A stretch of 22,031 nt of DNA. Origin: a virus. Positions 12,540 to 22,031 of this stretch are shown in pieces. The number at the start of each line of letters is the position of its first letter. The first letter of the stretch is position 1. The notes beneath the pieces are model-generated. The model worked only from the letters and a program-made list of their open reading frames with translations. It was not told the DNA's origin and made no database searches. The position numbers and the translations under genes are program-made. Location of the stretch: IMG/VR virus record IMGVR_UViG_3300035698_003857, positions 1 through 22,031 of that record; one strand, written 5' to 3'.

Positions 12540-12830
12540 TTATCCTGAAAAAACATTTGGACTACCTTCTGCTACATGAGCACCACACGATTGTAAATCA
12601 CCTATTCTACCTACAGCCTTACCATTTGCAAATACTGTAGAGGAGCCTTTAGTTAAAACACTATCATGGCAAACCCCAACAGGATTACAATGTATCGGCC
12701 AATGGTCTCCAACTCTATGAATTGGAATACCATTTACAAACACGTTAGGAGAACCTTCATCATTTCTTCTCGGAATATGAGTACAAGCACCATCTCCCAT
12801 ATCTCCCTTTCTTGCTATCGCTTTACCCAT
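12540..12830 (-). CDS. gp5.4: PAAR-repeat spike-tip protein, gp5.4-like (96 aa)
   Basis: Sharpens the tip of the central spike that punctures the outer membrane. The sequence shows the PAAR pattern: EGSPNVFVNGIPIHRVGDHWPIHC near residues 25-48 (written here in part: SPNVFVNG, HRVGD, H43, H47, C48), then GSSTVFANGKAVGRIGD, and a third SPNVF at the C-terminus. Candidate metal ligands are H38, H43, H47, C48, C54, H55 and C81. The length matches T4 gp5.4 (97). It follows the gp5-like gene directly, as expected for its binding partner. AGGAAATAG precedes the ATG. Confidence 0.95.
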   Translation of the reverse strand: MGKAIARKGDMGDGACTHIPRRNDEGSPNVFVNGIPIHRVGDHWPIHCNPVGVCHDSVLTKGSSTVFANGKAVGRIGDLQSCGAHVAEGSPNVFSG

Positions 12831-12844
12831 TCTATTTCCTATAT

Positions 12845-13765
12845 TTAGTTATGGTGAATTGTTGCTCCGGTATCTGAAATACTTCCGCTTGCATTTCTAC
12901 TAATAGACCCACCGACAGTTTGCAATAAATTACCATCTATATTTTCTGTTAAATTACCAGTAACAACTCTATTAATATTACCTGATATTTGTTCTTCAAC
13001 ATTACCAACTACAATTATATTAGCATTACCATCTATTTTTACATTAACAGTACCCTTTATATATATACTATCATCACCATAAATTATCTTATATTTACTT
13101 TTAATTATCTTTTCTACAACACTTCCATCAGGAAATATTTCCTCAAAGGTACCAGATTTATGATAATGGTGTATTCTTTCAACATTTGTTGTATCATCAT
13201 ATTCAACTATATGTCCAGATTTACTTTCTTTAACATTATTATTTGGATAGATTGCATCATATTCTGTAAGAGGTTCAGACCACACCTCATCACTATTAGC
13301 AATTGGTATATTTATTACAACATTATCTTTTTTATATTGCACTATTGTTTTTGTTATATTTTCATTTCTTGCTAATCTATTAATATCAGATTCACAAGTC
13401 ATATCACTTTTAGGATATTCTCCATTTGGGTCATTAAATCCTTCACTTATCAATGGTGCATTATTTGGTATACCAGCAAGCGTACCCATTACAATAGGTT
13501 TCTGTCCAATACTTCCATCACTAAAAAATATAACACACCACGTACCACACACCAAATTAGTAGGTGAACTTCCAACACCACTCACAGCGGCAGAGGTTGT
13601 CGGTTGCATAATTATAGCCCAAGGTAATGAGTTTGTTGGTATTTTTTGTTTATTTTTTGTATGCCAACCATGAACTCTAACACGGACACGACCCAATTTT
13701 TCTGGGTCATTAATATCTTCAATAACACCAATGCTCCACACCATACCTGAATTAAAACTTTTCAT
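12845..13765 (-). CDS. gp5: Central spike protein gp5-like, without lysozyme domain (306 aa)
   Basis: Trimeric tail needle that sits under the hub. Residues about 8-105 form the gp5/VgrG OB-fold domain (GVIEDINDPEKLGRVRVRV, LPWAIIMQP, GTWCVIFFSDGS, PIVMGTLAG). A linker follows, then HIVEYDDT, HYHKSGTFEEIFPDGS and YIKGTVNVKIDGN, leading into a beta-helix. Six octad repeats with glycines at residues 246, 254, 262, 270, 278, 286 and 294 are clearly visible. T4 gp5 (575 aa) has a lysozyme domain between the OB fold and the helix; here that domain is absent and no ExxxxxxxxDxxxxxT-type active site is seen. The next gene is its PAAR tip and the hub gene lies just upstream. The short gap after the kinase-like gene suggests co-translation. 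Confidence 0.9.
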   Translation of the reverse strand: MKSFNSGMVWSIGVIEDINDPEKLGRVRVRVHGWHTKNKQKIPTNSLPWAIIMQPTTSAAVSGVGSSPTNLVCGTWCVIFFSDGSIGQKPIVMGTLAGIPNNAPLISEGFNDPNGEYPKSDMTCESDINRLARNENITKTIVQYKKDNVVINIPIANSDEVWSEPLTEYDAIYPNNNVKESKSGHIVEYDDTTNVERIHHYHKSGTFEEIFPDGSVVEKIIKSKYKIIYGDDSIYIKGTVNVKIDGNANIIVVGNVEEQISGNINRVVTGNLTENIDGNLLQTVGGSISRNASGSISDTGATIHHN

Positions 13766-13767
13766 TA

Positions 13768-14613
13768 TTAATTATCCCAAATATATTTTGTTAAATCAGT
13801 TTTAGGTACATTATTAATTATCCAAGAATATAATTCATTAGACATAGCATTGTTTCGCATTGCTTTCCCTGGTTTTTTTATAGTTATATATTTAAAATCT
13901 TTTATTATACTTTTACCTTTTGAATTAGTTATTTTATTTCCTTTATCATCCGCATAATAAATTGTATGTTCTGGGTTATTTAAAATAACATATATTCCAC
14001 CATTCATACCCTTAGGTAAATTATTATTTTTTATCATATTATACAACGTAATTGCAGAACCTTCATGCACATTTAAAAGAATATCATCAGGTACAATTCG
14101 CTCTCTTGATTTATTATTTTTTACAGCTATTGAATAATTTGCTAATACCCATATAATATGAATATTTTCGGGTTTATATCCAACCCTCTCTAAATCATCA
14201 AAACTGGGTTTTAATGATTTCATATCAGCCATTGAAGCATCAAATAAAACATTTGGTAAATGTGTAGCACTAATATCTTTTAATAACAAATCTAATGTTT
14301 TTTCTTTTATATTTTTATCTTTTAAAAATTTATGTAGAAAAAAAACGTGTTTTGGATTTCTTAAATTTAATTTACTAATCTCTTGATTTTTTCCAGTTAA
14401 TTTTGATAATTTAATAAATGATTTTTTCCATTCATCAACATCTCGTATTTTAAATTTATTATTTTCAATAAAATTTTGTATAGCAAATCCTTTACCAGAA
14501 CCAGCACCACCAGCTAAAAATACAGCTTGCCCATAATTAGCACTATTTTGTATTACTAAAAGCTTTTCTTGCAAATATTCGGGCGAATCACTAAATGAAT
14601 TAAAATCTAACAT
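13768..14613 (-). CDS. P-loop kinase-like protein of zeta-toxin/PNK type (281 aa)
   Basis: Probable nucleotide-binding phosphotransferase of unknown substrate. Walker A GGAGSGKG is at residues 35-42, an RDVDEW motif at 57-62 resembles the D-x-D/E element of zeta toxins and polynucleotide kinases, a hydrophobic strand VLFDAS (122-127) fits Walker B, and NKSRERIVPDD (167-177) followed by H183 fits the arginine-rich lid of the zeta family. The last 90 residues are not recognised and may bind a partner. The gene lies between the hub-like gene and gp5, with gaps of nine and two bases, so it is made with the hub components. No antitoxin gene is next to it. Whether it acts in assembly, modifies a host target, or is a virion protein cannot be told. 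Confidence 0.7.
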   Translation of the reverse strand: MLDFNSFSDSPEYLQEKLLVIQNSANYGQAVFLAGGAGSGKGFAIQNFIENNKFKIRDVDEWKKSFIKLSKLTGKNQEISKLNLRNPKHVFFLHKFLKDKNIKEKTLDLLLKDISATHLPNVLFDASMADMKSLKPSFDDLERVGYKPENIHIIWVLANYSIAVKNNKSRERIVPDDILLNVHEGSAITLYNMIKNNNLPKGMNGGIYVILNNPEHTIYYADDKGNKITNSKGKSIIKDFKYITIKKPGKAMRNNAMSNELYSWIINNVPKTDLTKYIWDN

Positions 14614-18878: not shown

Positions 18879-19592
18879 ATGTCAGAACTTTTGAAAAACC
18901 GGATAACAAACTTAAAAACATATGGTGTTGCAACACCTAATAAATTTATGGTTAATATATTTCCACCTTCGAATAGTTATTTTAACAAAAATAAATCCGA
19001 AAGGGTATCATTATCTTGTGTAACTTCTGGATTTCCGGGTAAAAGTTTTATTTCATCGGATAGAAATTACCGAGGACATAAACGAAAAATACCATATGGA
19101 AAAATATATGAGGATAATATTTCATTAACATTTATTGTAAATACTAATATGTTAGAAAAAATATTTTTTAATGCATGGCAAGATTTAATTGTTGATAATA
19201 TAAATCACGAATATAATTTTTATGATAATTATGTATCAAAAATTAATATATATCAATTAGATAAAATGTTAAATCCAATATATGGTATTACTTTATCAGA
19301 GGCATACCCAATCGCGGTTTCAAAATTAGATTTAGATGTTGCTTCTAATGATTCATATCATACATTAAGTGTTGAATTTGCATATTATGAATGGAAAGAA
19401 ATATTACATTCAGTAGCAACACCACCATTTTCAATAGAGGGATTCGAAAAAGAAGTGGTTGATATTATTACAGCCGGAAAAGATGAAATAAATAGTAGTA
19501 AGTTTAAAAAAGCAATAAATAAAATGAAAGCTATGAAAAGTAAATATGATGATGCATACAATAATGCATATCATAATTACACAGGTACATAG
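18879..19592 (+). CDS. gp54: Tail-tube-like protein, gp54 (tube initiator) candidate, C-terminus frameshifted (237 aa)
   Basis: The protein has the gp19/gp54 tube-like layout: 'TPNKFMVNIFPP' near residue 20, 'LSCVTSGFPGKSF' near 45, 'GHKRKIPYGKIYEDNISLTFIVNTN' (about 66-90, read in part), 'FFNAWQDLI' near 97, and 'EAYPIAVSKLDLDVASNDSYHTLSVEFAYYEW' (about 140-172, in part). T4 gp54 caps the hub and starts tube growth. A size of 237, larger than the tube protein gp19 (163) but smaller than gp54 (320), and a baseplate setting favour gp54 over gp19. AAGGATAA precedes the ATG, right after the previous stop. The reading frame is broken near its end by a 7-bp tandem duplication. Without it the protein would end 26 residues later. 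Confidence 0.65.
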   Translation: MSELLKNRITNLKTYGVATPNKFMVNIFPPSNSYFNKNKSERVSLSCVTSGFPGKSFISSDRNYRGHKRKIPYGKIYEDNISLTFIVNTNMLEKIFFNAWQDLIVDNINHEYNFYDNYVSKINIYQLDKMLNPIYGITLSEAYPIAVSKLDLDVASNDSYHTLSVEFAYYEWKEILHSVATPPFSIEGFEKEVVDIITAGKDEINSSKFKKAINKMKAMKSKYDDAYNNAYHNYTGT

Positions 19593-19677: not shown

Positions 19678-19693
19678 TTTTGAAAGGAAAAAA

Positions 19694-20413
19694 ATGAGTA
19701 TACCAAAATTAAAAGTACCTATACATGAAGTAACATTACCATCTGGTCAAGCTATAAAATATAGACCATATGTTTTGGGTGAACAAAAAATATTATTAAT
19801 GGCTGCGGAAAGTCAAGATTCTAAAGAAATATTAAATGCCATTAAAACTGTAGTTGGTGTTTGTGTACAATCACCTAAATCATTTTCTGTTGAAAAACTA
19901 TCTGGCTTTGATTTAGAATATTTCCTTATGCAACTTAGAGCAAAAAGTGTTGGAGAATTTATAGAATTAACATTAAGATGTCCAGATTGTACATCAAAAA
20001 CAGATGTTAATATTAATATAGAGGAAGATATTAAAATTAAAACATCTAAAGACCACAAAAAGAAAATAAATATTGGTGGTGGTATTGGTGTTGTTATGAA
20101 TTATCCTACATTAGGCCTGTCACGTAAAGGTGTTGGTAAAATGTCTGAAATGAGTGTTATTGATGCTGATATATTTTTAGTTAAATCAACAATTAAATCC
20201 ATTTATGATAAAGATTCTGTACATCAAATAACAAAAAAAGATAATGAGGAATTAGATGAATTTATAAATTCATTATCAACAACACAATATGAAAAAATAA
20301 TAAACTTTTTCAAAACAGCACCTACAGTTATTTGTTCAAAAGAATGGAAATGCAGTAATTGTAAGAAAATGCATACTCTTGAATTGTCTGGATTAGAAGA
20401 TTTTTTTATCTAA
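19694..20413 (+). CDS. gp26: Baseplate/tail assembly protein gp26-like (239 aa)
   Basis: Matches the T4 baseplate hub assembly gp26 family. The N-terminus (PIHEVTLPSGQAIKYRPYVLGEQKILLMA, read in part) and 'LSGFDLEYFLMQLRAKSVGEFIELTLRCPDC' region are diagnostic. Two CxxC pairs, C96/C99 and C220/C223, suggest a zinc-binding site. The length exceeds T4 gp26 (208). I placed the start at the ATG 19694 because AAAGGAAA lies just before it; an upstream in-frame TTG at 19661 adds eleven unlikely residues. The last codons are GAT TTT TTT ATC TAA, which contain a correctly phased T_TTT_TTT slippery heptamer, so part of the ribosomes may continue into the -1 frame to give a 293-residue fusion with the gp51-like segment. 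Confidence 0.87.
   Translation: MSIPKLKVPIHEVTLPSGQAIKYRPYVLGEQKILLMAAESQDSKEILNAIKTVVGVCVQSPKSFSVEKLSGFDLEYFLMQLRAKSVGEFIELTLRCPDCTSKTDVNINIEEDIKIKTSKDHKKKINIGGGIGVVMNYPTLGLSRKGVGKMSEMSVIDADIFLVKSTIKSIYDKDSVHQITKKDNEELDEFINSLSTTQYEKIINFFKTAPTVICSKEWKCSNCKKMHTLELSGLEDFFI
20401..20407 (+). promoter_or_regulatory. Candidate -1 ribosomal frameshift site T_TTT_TTT
   Basis: Seven T residues are phased as X_XXY_YYZ with respect to the gp26 frame, two codons before its stop. A weak stem (AGCC at 20413-20416 with GGCT at 20433-20436) begins five bases downstream. A slip by -1 leads straight into an open frame with conserved-looking sequence. No stable pseudoknot is obvious by eye. Confidence 0.6.
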
Positions 20414-20574
20414 GCCTCTGTAATGAAACTTTGGCTAATTTATATCAAGTATTATATATATTAAAAAGTAAATCAAATTTTTCATTATTTGAACTCGAAA
20501 ACCTTATTCCGTGGGAATATGATGTGTATGCCCATATGTTCGCAAATACAATAAAAGAGAAAAACAATGGCTGA
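20407..20574 (+). CDS. gp51: gp51-like segment expressed by -1 frameshift from gp26 (55 codons)
   Basis: In the -1 frame after the heptamer the sequence reads YLSLCNETLANLYQVLYIL, then SKSNFSLFELENLIPWEYDV, then YAHMFANTIKEKNNG and TGA. The 'FSLFELENLIPWEYDVY' core resembles the small hub-assembly (gp51-like) proteins after gp26 in marine T4-like phages, and the short terminal domains of tail assembly chaperones. There is no ATG before residue 43 and the only early alternative, TTG at 20431, has no ribosome binding site. The frame is open upstream only back to 20383. The stop overlaps the next start (20567). Expression as an extension of gp26 is the simplest reading. Confidence 0.65.
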   Translation, partial: YLSLCNETLANLYQVLYILKSKSNFSLFELENLIPWEYDVYAHMFANTIKEKNNG

Positions 20575-22031
20575 TAAAAATCTTCTGACTATCATAAATG
20601 CATTAAAATTAAATACATCTAATAACCAACCGGTTGTAATTTCTGACAACAACATAGAAGTTATAACCAATCCTCAACCAAGAACTGAGGAACGTAGGCA
20701 TACTCTTGATAAACGGTTAGAACAATTCTTAAAAATCATTGCTCCTACAGTTAAAACTAATAAAAAACAAAAAATGTTACCTTTACCAGAGAAAAATGAT
20801 GAAAATAATAACCAATTAATAACTACAACTACACCATCAACAGCGATTGTTATTAGAAATCAAAATGATGATAATAGACAATTATCAAATACAACAAATA
20901 CAATTGCAAATACACCATCAACATTTATTAGAAAAGAAAATAATGATAAGGAATTAAAAAACTTTCATAAAGCTCTTATTTTTAGTTTAATAAAAATACA
21001 AAACTTATTAATTAATAATAATATTTTAAATAAACCAAAAAATGTTGAAAAACCATTTAATGAATTATTTGAAAAAAATGAAGAAAGTGATAAAAAGGAG
21101 TTTGGAGCAAAACAAAAAGAAAATGAAGAAAGTGATAAAAAGGAGTTTGGAGCAAAACAAAAAGAAAATGAAGAAAGTGATAAAAAGGAGTTTGGAGCAA
21201 AACAAAAAGAAAATGAAAAAGATGATAGATACACAGAAAAACAAGAACGAGAAGATTATGAAGAAAAAAAAGAAGGGTTGAGTGGAATAGGTGTATTTAG
21301 GAAAGTTAAAAGTATAGCTGGTAGTATAGCAACTGCACCAGCAAAAGCAGATGAAAGTATTAAAAATTTCCTTAAAAATACATTAGGGCCAGCAAACTTA
21401 ATGAAATATATTATATCACCTGTAATAACTGCTCTTTTAGTTACTGGTGGATTAGTAATATTAATTGGATTAATAACAATGCTTGTAAAAAAATTAATTT
21501 TTAATCCCTTTAAATCTTGGGCTGATAAATTTATAGCTAAACGAGATTCTATCAAAGATACTAAAGGCACTATAGATGAATCAAAGAACATGGAAACTGA
21601 TTTTAGAAAACAAGGAAAAGATATTAACTTCAATGTTAAATCATTTACAAATCAACTTAATAAAGCAAAATCAGATGAAGAAAAACAAAAACTTATTGAT
21701 GATTTAAAACCAGAAGAAAGAGAAATAGTTAGTGGATATGTAGGTTCAAGAAAACATGCATTAGATTCTGAAATAAAATTACATAAAATACGCCGTGGTG
21801 ATGTATCTAAAGTAAATCCCGGTCTACAACGACATTATACTGAAATAGATAAAATTAAAAATGCAGAATCAGAAAGCTTTAATAAAATATTAAAAATGAT
21901 ACCAGATTCAAAATTTGATAACATAAGTGAAAAGATTGAAAATGAAAAAGACCTTAATATAATTTATGGTGATGATGAACGAGGTTATCATCCAAAAGAA
22001 AAAACTTTTGGAGAACATGTTAATAATGAAC
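20567..22031 (+). CDS. Long structural protein, tape-measure candidate, cut by the window edge
   Basis: An open frame from ATG 20567 runs without a stop to the window end (488 codons seen). It starts MADKNLLTIINALKL. Residues about 70-130 are N/T-rich and low-complexity. Residues 171-215 are three perfect copies of a charged 15-residue unit (NEESDKKEFGAKQKE). One hydrophobic segment at about 285-308 (PVITALLVTGGLVILIGLI) looks membrane-spanning, and the rest is charged and helical. Position right after a frameshift-type chaperone pair, a hydrophobic segment in a long helical protein, and length variation by internal repeats are all typical of tape measure proteins; T4's is gp29, near 51. No sequence match to gp29 was recognised, so this is inference. 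AAAGAGA gives a weak ribosome binding site. Confidence 0.6.
   Translation, partial: MADKNLLTIINALKLNTSNNQPVVISDNNIEVITNPQPRTEERRHTLDKRLEQFLKIIAPTVKTNKKQKMLPLPEKNDENNNQLITTTTPSTAIVIRNQNDDNRQLSNTTNTIANTPSTFIRKENNDKELKNFHKALIFSLIKIQNLLINNNILNKPKNVEKPFNELFEKNEESDKKEFGAKQKENEESDKKEFGAKQKENEESDKKEFGAKQKENEKDDRYTEKQEREDYEEKKEGLSGIGVFRKVKSIAGSIATAPAKADESIKNFLKNTLGPANLMKYIISPVITALLVTGGLVILIGLITMLVKKLIFNPFKSWADKFIAKRDSIKDTKGTIDESKNMETDFRKQGKDINFNVKSFTNQLNKAKSDEEKQKLIDDLKPEEREIVSGYVGSRKHALDSEIKLHKIRRGDVSKVNPGLQRHYTEIDKIKNAESESFNKILKMIPDSKFDNISEKIENEKDLNIIYGDDERGYHPKEKTFGEHVNNE
21077..21211 (+). repeat. Three perfect 45-bp tandem repeats
   Basis: Units start at 21077, 21122 and 21167 and are identical, each coding for NEESDKKEFGAKQKE. 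A partial fourth unit (AATGAAAAAGAT) follows. The unit length is a multiple of three, so copy number can change without loss of frame. Confidence 0.97.

What the first reader, a model, noticed from the sequence alone, without database searches (positions are those of the whole stretch)
20383..20574. Lambda G/GT-like -1 frameshift joining gp26 and a gp51-like segment
The gp26 gene ends GAT TTT TTT ATC TAA. The seven T residues form a classic X_XXY_YYZ slippery site in the correct phase. A -1 slip opens 55 further codons that carry a conserved-looking core (FSLFELENLIPWEYDVY), have no usable start codon or ribosome binding site, and fill what would otherwise be the largest gap in the rightward unit. 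The following gene looks like a tape measure. Shifted tail assembly chaperone genes just before the tape measure are well known in siphophages and P2-like phages, but T4-like phages are usually described with separate genes 26 and 51. This would unite them with the general tail-chaperone scheme.
Basis: partly seen in the sequence, partly recalled or inferred. Interest (0 to 1): 0.85.

Follow-up and report, generated by a model that had tools for sequence, protein, structure and literature searches.

The report
Frameshifted tail chaperone in T4-like phage
A ribosome slip at a run of seven T's at the end of gene 26 very probably makes a longer form of a phage tail-assembly helper protein; the site is real and strongly conserved, but this trick was already described for T4-like phages in 2022.

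Summary
Gene 26 (19694-20413) ends GAT TTT TTT ATC TAA; T_TTT_TTT (20401-20407) is in phase, and the -1 frame runs 55 codons to TGA 20572-20574 (293-aa product). The -1 segment is a real gp51-type domain (phrog_634, E 1.6e-12). Of 101 loci examined (window included), 100 (65 clusters at 70% identity) carry T_TTT_TTN in phase at the gp26 end, followed by the -1 extension. The constraint is on nucleotides, not only on Phe-Phe: other Phe-Phe pairs in the same genes are T_TTT_TTY in 4 of 101, and T4-type phages, which do not need the site, spell it TTC TTT. T4 gp51 is a single 249-aa ORF collinear with the frameshift fusion. The predicted gp26 N-terminal domain matches solved tail assembly chaperones best (3FGX, HK97 gp13). 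So this is -1 frameshifting that makes short and long tail chaperones. It is prior art (Vladimirov, Gautam & Davidson 2022, as reported by two papers read here). Possibly less documented: a downstream hairpin, an upstream Shine-Dalgarno-like word, and an NTT_TTY variant in Ackermannviridae. Verdict: new member of a known kind; no direct protein evidence.

The parts
19694..20413 (+). gp26 / short tail assembly chaperone (TAC-N), 239 aa, ATG start, SD-like AAAGGA at 19683-19688
   Evidence: PF12322 E 5.2e-54, phrog_150 E 1e-55; AF2 model pLDDT 90.9 whose N-terminal domain matches 3FGX and 2OB9
20401..20407 (+). Slippery heptamer T_TTT_TTT, in gp26 phase, one codon before the TAA
   Evidence: Sequence; T_TTT_TTN in phase in 100 of 101 loci
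20407..20574 (+). -1 frame extension, 55 codons plus TGA: C-terminal chaperone domain (TAC-C, 'gp51'), read as a gp26::gp51 fusion of 293 aa
   Evidence: (phrog_634 E 1.6e-12)
20413..20436 (+). Weak candidate stimulatory hairpin AGCC...GGCT, 5 nt after the heptamer
   Evidence: z -2.0 against synonymous resampling of 36 nt, but z -0.1 against dinucleotide shuffles of 103 nt; the same position holds strong hairpins in many relatives
20567..22031 (+). Next gene, runs off the contig end (488+ aa), probable tape measure; its start overlaps the -1 frame stop (ATGGCTGA)
   Evidence: Position after the chaperone genes; hydrophobic stretch; no family match; identity inferred, not shown
18879..19592 (+). 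Tail tube protein upstream of gp26
   Evidence: phrog_45 E 2.3e-33

Best explanation
gp26 is the short tail assembly chaperone (TAC-N) of an uncultivated T4-like myophage. Ribosomes decode TTT TTT near its end; a minority slip back one base on T_TTT_TTT, miss the TAA one codon later and go on in the -1 frame for 55 codons, making a long form (TAC-NC, 293 aa) with a C-terminal domain homologous to the end of T4 gp51. By analogy with lambda gpG/gpGT, many short and few long copies would coat the tape measure protein during tail assembly, with the C domain recruiting tube protein. Shown: sequence, phase, homology, conservation, nucleotide-level constraint, collinearity with T4 gp51, TAC-like predicted fold. 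Inferred: that slippage happens, its efficiency, and the chaperone role.
For: (1) In-phase T_TTT_TTN near the gp26 stop in 100 of 101 loci (65 clusters), followed by a conserved -1 extension; 56 more loci in a second scan. (2) Nucleotide constraint: the codon before Phe-Phe ends in T 100/100 (background 0.62), first Phe TTT 100/100 (background 0.69); other Phe-Phe in the same genes are T_TTT_TTY 4/101. (3) Natural negative control: T4-type gp26, with gp51 as a separate complete gene, keeps Phe-Phe as TTC TTT in all 7 loci read, some of them close relatives. (4) No ATG in the first 16 -1 codons of 39/98 loci, no ATG/GTG/TTG in 20/98; third-position periodicity of the -1 frame begins right after the heptamer, also in no-ATG loci. 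(5) T4 gp51, one ORF, aligns with the fusion across the junction: hhalign 99.2%, E 1.1e-19; it matches phrog_150 and phrog_634; T4 gp26 and gp51 are both PF12322. (6) Best structural matches of the gp26 model are tail chaperones 3FGX (Z 8.2, 85 residues, 3.0 A) and HK97 gp13 2OB9 (Z 6.8, 83 residues, 4.4 A), next unrelated Z 4.1. (7) RNA structure excess 5 nt past the heptamer, mean z -1.16 (SE 0.24) against synonymous resampling, controls near 0.
Against: No protein or ribosome-profiling data. The window itself lacks the GAG-GG word seen upstream in many relatives, and its downstream hairpin is weak. Many cyanophages have an ATG 2-6 codons into the extension, so initiation there cannot be excluded for them. 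Foldseek alone gave no significant match, and the second look at the T4-type gp51 model listed no TAC structure.
Confidence: 0.93

Rival explanations
1. The gp51 segment is a separate small protein made by termination-reinitiation or internal initiation just after the gp26 stop.
For: Most records annotate gp51 as its own gene, with ATG overlapping or 2-6 codons after the gp26 stop; 12 loci have a start with a 4-base SD word.
Against: 39/98 loci, the window included, have no ATG in the first 16 codons and 20/98 no start at all; the -1 coding signal begins at the heptamer; the heptamer constraint is left unexplained; in several loci the annotated ATG lies in the 5' arm of a hairpin.
Confidence: 0.04
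2. Sequencing or assembly error in a T homopolymer: gp26 and gp51 are really one in-frame gene (8 T's).
For: Metagenomic contig; homopolymers are error-prone; T4 gp51 is a true in-frame fusion.
Against: The same -1 arrangement is in cultured isolates and in over 150 loci, many with the six-T spelling T_TTT_TTC.
Confidence: 0.01
3. Remnant: gp51 decayed after losing its start codon, and the open -1 frame has no function.
For: No usable start codon in the window.
Against: Conserved core, phrog_634 match, third-position periodicity and an open -1 frame in all relatives not cut by a contig end.
Confidence: 0.01

Closest known systems
T4-like phage tail assembly chaperones (Vladimirov, Gautam & Davidson 2022, Virology 566:9-15)
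   Same: Same gene family (26/51), short and long chaperone, polyT -1 site, per PMC12846349 and PMC10885494
   Different: The paper is not held, so its phage list could not be compared; the window is another, uncultivated lineage, 28-41% identical in gp26 to the relatives aligned
Lambda G/GT and HK97 gp13/gp14 frameshifted tail chaperones
   Same: -1 slip near the end of the short gene before the tape measure; gp26 N domain resembles HK97 gp13
   Different: No sequence similarity found; different slippery sequence (lambda G_GGA_AAG, from memory); gp26 has a large extra domain with two CxxC motifs
T4 gp26 and gp51
   Same: Homologous: gp26 = short form, gp51 = long form
   Different: T4 makes them from two separate genes and has no slippery heptamer
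Vandenendeviridae/Andersonviridae TAC frameshift (phage Adele, PMC12846349)
   Same: -1 frameshift at a T-rich site at the end of TAC-N
   Different: GTTTTT site; other myophage families

Membership tests
-1 programmed frameshift tail assembly chaperone (TAC-N/TAC-NC) | In-phase slippery heptamer near the end of the short gene | tested here: met
   T_TTT_TTT at 20401-20407, conserved in 100/101 loci
-1 programmed frameshift tail assembly chaperone (TAC-N/TAC-NC) | Downstream frame conserved as protein and without an obligate start of its own | tested here: met
-1 programmed frameshift tail assembly chaperone (TAC-N/TAC-NC) | TAC fold of the short protein | tested here: met
   3FGX Z 8.2 and 2OB9 Z 6.8 on residues 1-95 of the model; moderate scores, but standing above unrelated rows
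-1 programmed frameshift tail assembly chaperone (TAC-N/TAC-NC) | Position between tail tube and tape measure genes | tested here: inconclusive
   Tail tube upstream; downstream ORF incomplete and without family match; the downstream gene of P-TIM40 matches tape measure profiles, E 1.3e-9
-1 programmed frameshift tail assembly chaperone (TAC-N/TAC-NC) | Both products made in infected cells at a fixed ratio | not testable with these tools
   Needs a reporter or mass spectrometry
T4 gp26/gp51 family (PF12322, phrog_150, phrog_634) | Profile match of both parts | tested here: met
T4 layout: separate short and long chaperone genes | A second, complete long gene in one frame | tested here: inconclusive
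   No second gene of this kind was seen among the ORFs of this 22-kb contig, but the rest of the genome is not available

The most novel reading that the evidence does not exclude
The T4-like chaperone frameshift uses a three-part signal like that of bacterial dnaX: a Shine-Dalgarno-like GAGG word about 10 nt upstream, a T_TTT_TTY heptamer and a hairpin about 5 nt downstream, in lineage-dependent mixtures. In Ackermannviridae the same junction uses a T7 gene 10-like NTT_TTY site with a mostly unannotated C domain.
Probability: 0.4. Interest if true: 0.4.

Novelty: new member of a known kind. Interest (0 to 1): 0.27.

Why it matters
It confirms, on a wide set including uncultivated marine phages, that most T4-like lineages sampled make their tail chaperone by frameshifting and that T4, the textbook case, is the exception. 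Practically, many records annotate 'gp51 baseplate hub assembly catalyst' as a stand-alone gene that is better described as the C-terminal part of a joined CDS; in two Ackermannviridae records read here the segment is not annotated at all.

Tried and rejected
Literature searches for gp26/gp51 with frameshift gave only unrelated gp numbers; the key 2022 paper is not held, so its content is taken from two citing papers. A single-sequence search of viral contigs found only 3 relatives; the alignment search solved this. SD-like words of 4 bases upstream of the heptamer show no excess over synonymous resampling, because the Leu-Glu-Gly motif yields them anyway; with 5 bases the count is 47 vs 31.2 (sd 4.5) in all loci and 30 vs 18.6 (sd 3.4) in cluster representatives. 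One fixed hairpin register pairs 72% in an ATG-type group against 31-57% when slid, but not in no-ATG loci, so no single structure is shared by all. PDB sequence searches with gp26 or T4-type gp51 profiles found nothing. Foldseek on the gp26 model gave no hit below 1e-3, and the second look at the T4-type gp51 model listed no TAC. The fused protein was not folded as such, because a -1 product is not a plain translation.

Full report
What is there. The window is one whole 22,031-base virus contig, 24-31% G+C. On the right it carries head closure, DNA end protector, tail tube, gp26, the segment in question and a long ORF cut by the contig end; on the left, leftward baseplate genes. gp26 is 19694-20413 and ends GAT TTT TTT ATC TAA. 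The heptamer T_TTT_TTT is 20401-20407, in phase. Re-reading one base back gives ...D F F Y L S L C N..., 55 codons to TGA 20572-20574 and a 293-aa fusion.

Is it more than chance? In-phase T_TTT_TTN heptamers occur 8 times in 6,892 codon positions of the window's genes, so one near the end of a given gene is a 1-2% event. That alone would be weak. But the -1 peptide matches phrog_634, 'baseplate hub assembly catalyst', at E 1.6e-12, and tblastn finds relatives of it in 303 phage records.

Conservation. I collected the window and 22 phage and contig loci by hand, and 80 loci by profile from viral contigs. Of 101 with a readable gp26 end, 100 have T_TTT_TTN in phase (76 TTTTTTC, 23 TTTTTTT, 1 TTTTTTA), usually one or no codon before the stop and at most about ten; all those not cut by a contig end have the full -1 extension. 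They form 65 clusters at 70% identity. Loci with the stop displaced (L011, L056, L079, L094) still start the -1 homology at the heptamer, not at the stop. A second profile scan added 56 loci with the same heptamer.

Nucleotide against amino-acid constraint. Phe-Phe could be kept for the protein. But the codon before it ends in T in 100/100 (expected 0.62 for those amino acids) and the first Phe is TTT in 100/100 (background 0.69), whereas other Phe-Phe pairs in the same genes are T_TTT_TTY in only 4 of 101. These counts are not phylogenetically independent; the 65 cluster representatives give the same picture. T4-type phages give a natural control: their gp26 keeps Phe-Phe but writes it TTC TTT in all 7 loci read here, some of them close relatives.

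Start codons. 39 of 98 loci, the window among them, have no ATG in the first 16 codons of the extension, and 20 have no ATG, GTG or TTG. Substitutions follow the -1 frame from just after the heptamer (positions 1/2/3: 0.28/0.22/0.43), also in no-ATG pairs (0.24/0.22/0.42). This is hard to explain by separate initiation.

T4 as a key. In T4, 26 and 51 are separate, divergent genes. Both are PF12322 members: gp26 over its full length, gp51 with residues 1-201 plus a tail. gp51 aligns with the frameshift fusion straight through the junction (hhalign 99.2%, E 1.1e-19; C part alone 94.2%, E 1.1e-7) and matches both phrog_150 and phrog_634. Hence T4 gp51 is the long form in one ORF, T4 gp26 the short form, and the 'gp51' of cyanophages and of this window only the C-terminal domain.

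Fold. AlphaFold2 of the window's gp26 has mean pLDDT 90.9. Foldseek alone finds nothing significant, though HK97 gp13 (2ob9) and 3fgx are in its list. On closer alignment these are the top two, Z 6.8 (83 residues, 4.4 A) and 8.2 (85 residues, 3.0 A), the next unrelated entry at 4.1. Both are regarded as phage tail assembly chaperones in PMC9603447. Scores of this size can arise by chance, but that both top entries belong to the expected functional family is telling.

Stimulators. RNA structure is in excess in the 36 nt starting 5 nt after the heptamer (mean z -1.16, SE 0.24, n 64, against synonymous resampling in the -1 frame), falling to about -0.1 from 36 nt after the heptamer start; upstream controls lie between -0.02 and -0.37. 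Several cyanophage-like loci have 10-12 bp hairpins there. The window's own is weak. Upstream, Glu-Gly five codons before the heptamer uses GAG in 54/77 against 7/36 elsewhere in the same genes, which puts GAGG about 10 nt before the heptamer, the spacing known for dnaX (from memory); the window lacks it.

Exception. Ackermannviridae keep the -1 extension but use NTT_TTY in 22 of 22 loci, so the heptamer is not universal in the wider family.

Prior art. PMC12846349 states that polyT sequences are known -1 signals in TAC-N genes of T4-like phages, citing Vladimirov et al. 2022; PMC10885494 states that some T4-like phages instead carry a short gene and a long fusion gene, citing the same paper. 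The central idea of the finding is therefore published. I could not read the 2022 paper itself.

Verdict. Observation confirmed, mechanism very probable, novelty low: a new member of a known kind.

Noticed in passing
L017 2166-2351; L116 1683-1856; L117, L118, L119-L139, L157: Ackermannviridae gp26 homologues (22/22 loci of the scan) have a conserved -1 extension, unannotated in phages Marshall and Menlow, after an NTT_TTY site (A_ATT_TTC, G_GTT_TTC, C_GTT_TTT, A_CTT_TTC) instead of T_TTT_TTY; weak phrog_634 matches, E 0.003-0.04. T7 gene 10 uses a similar site (from memory).
   Followed up: partly
window 21075-21227: 45-bp tandem repeat, 3.4 copies, 98% alike, inside the putative tape measure ORF.
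   Followed up: no
window 13768-14613, strand -: P-loop protein (weak Zeta_toxin match below the cut-off; phrog_5268 of unknown function, E 8e-54) sits inside the baseplate gene cluster.
   Followed up: no
window 19694-20413, residues 89-239 of gp26: gp26 has an extra beta-rich region with two CxxC motifs (CPDC, CSNC), weakly like ZPR1 zinc ribbons (Z 4.1); its role in a chaperone is unexplained.
   Followed up: no
window 12540-12830 and 12845-13765, strand -: Gp5-like hub protein without a lysozyme match and a separate PAAR tip protein.
   Followed up: no
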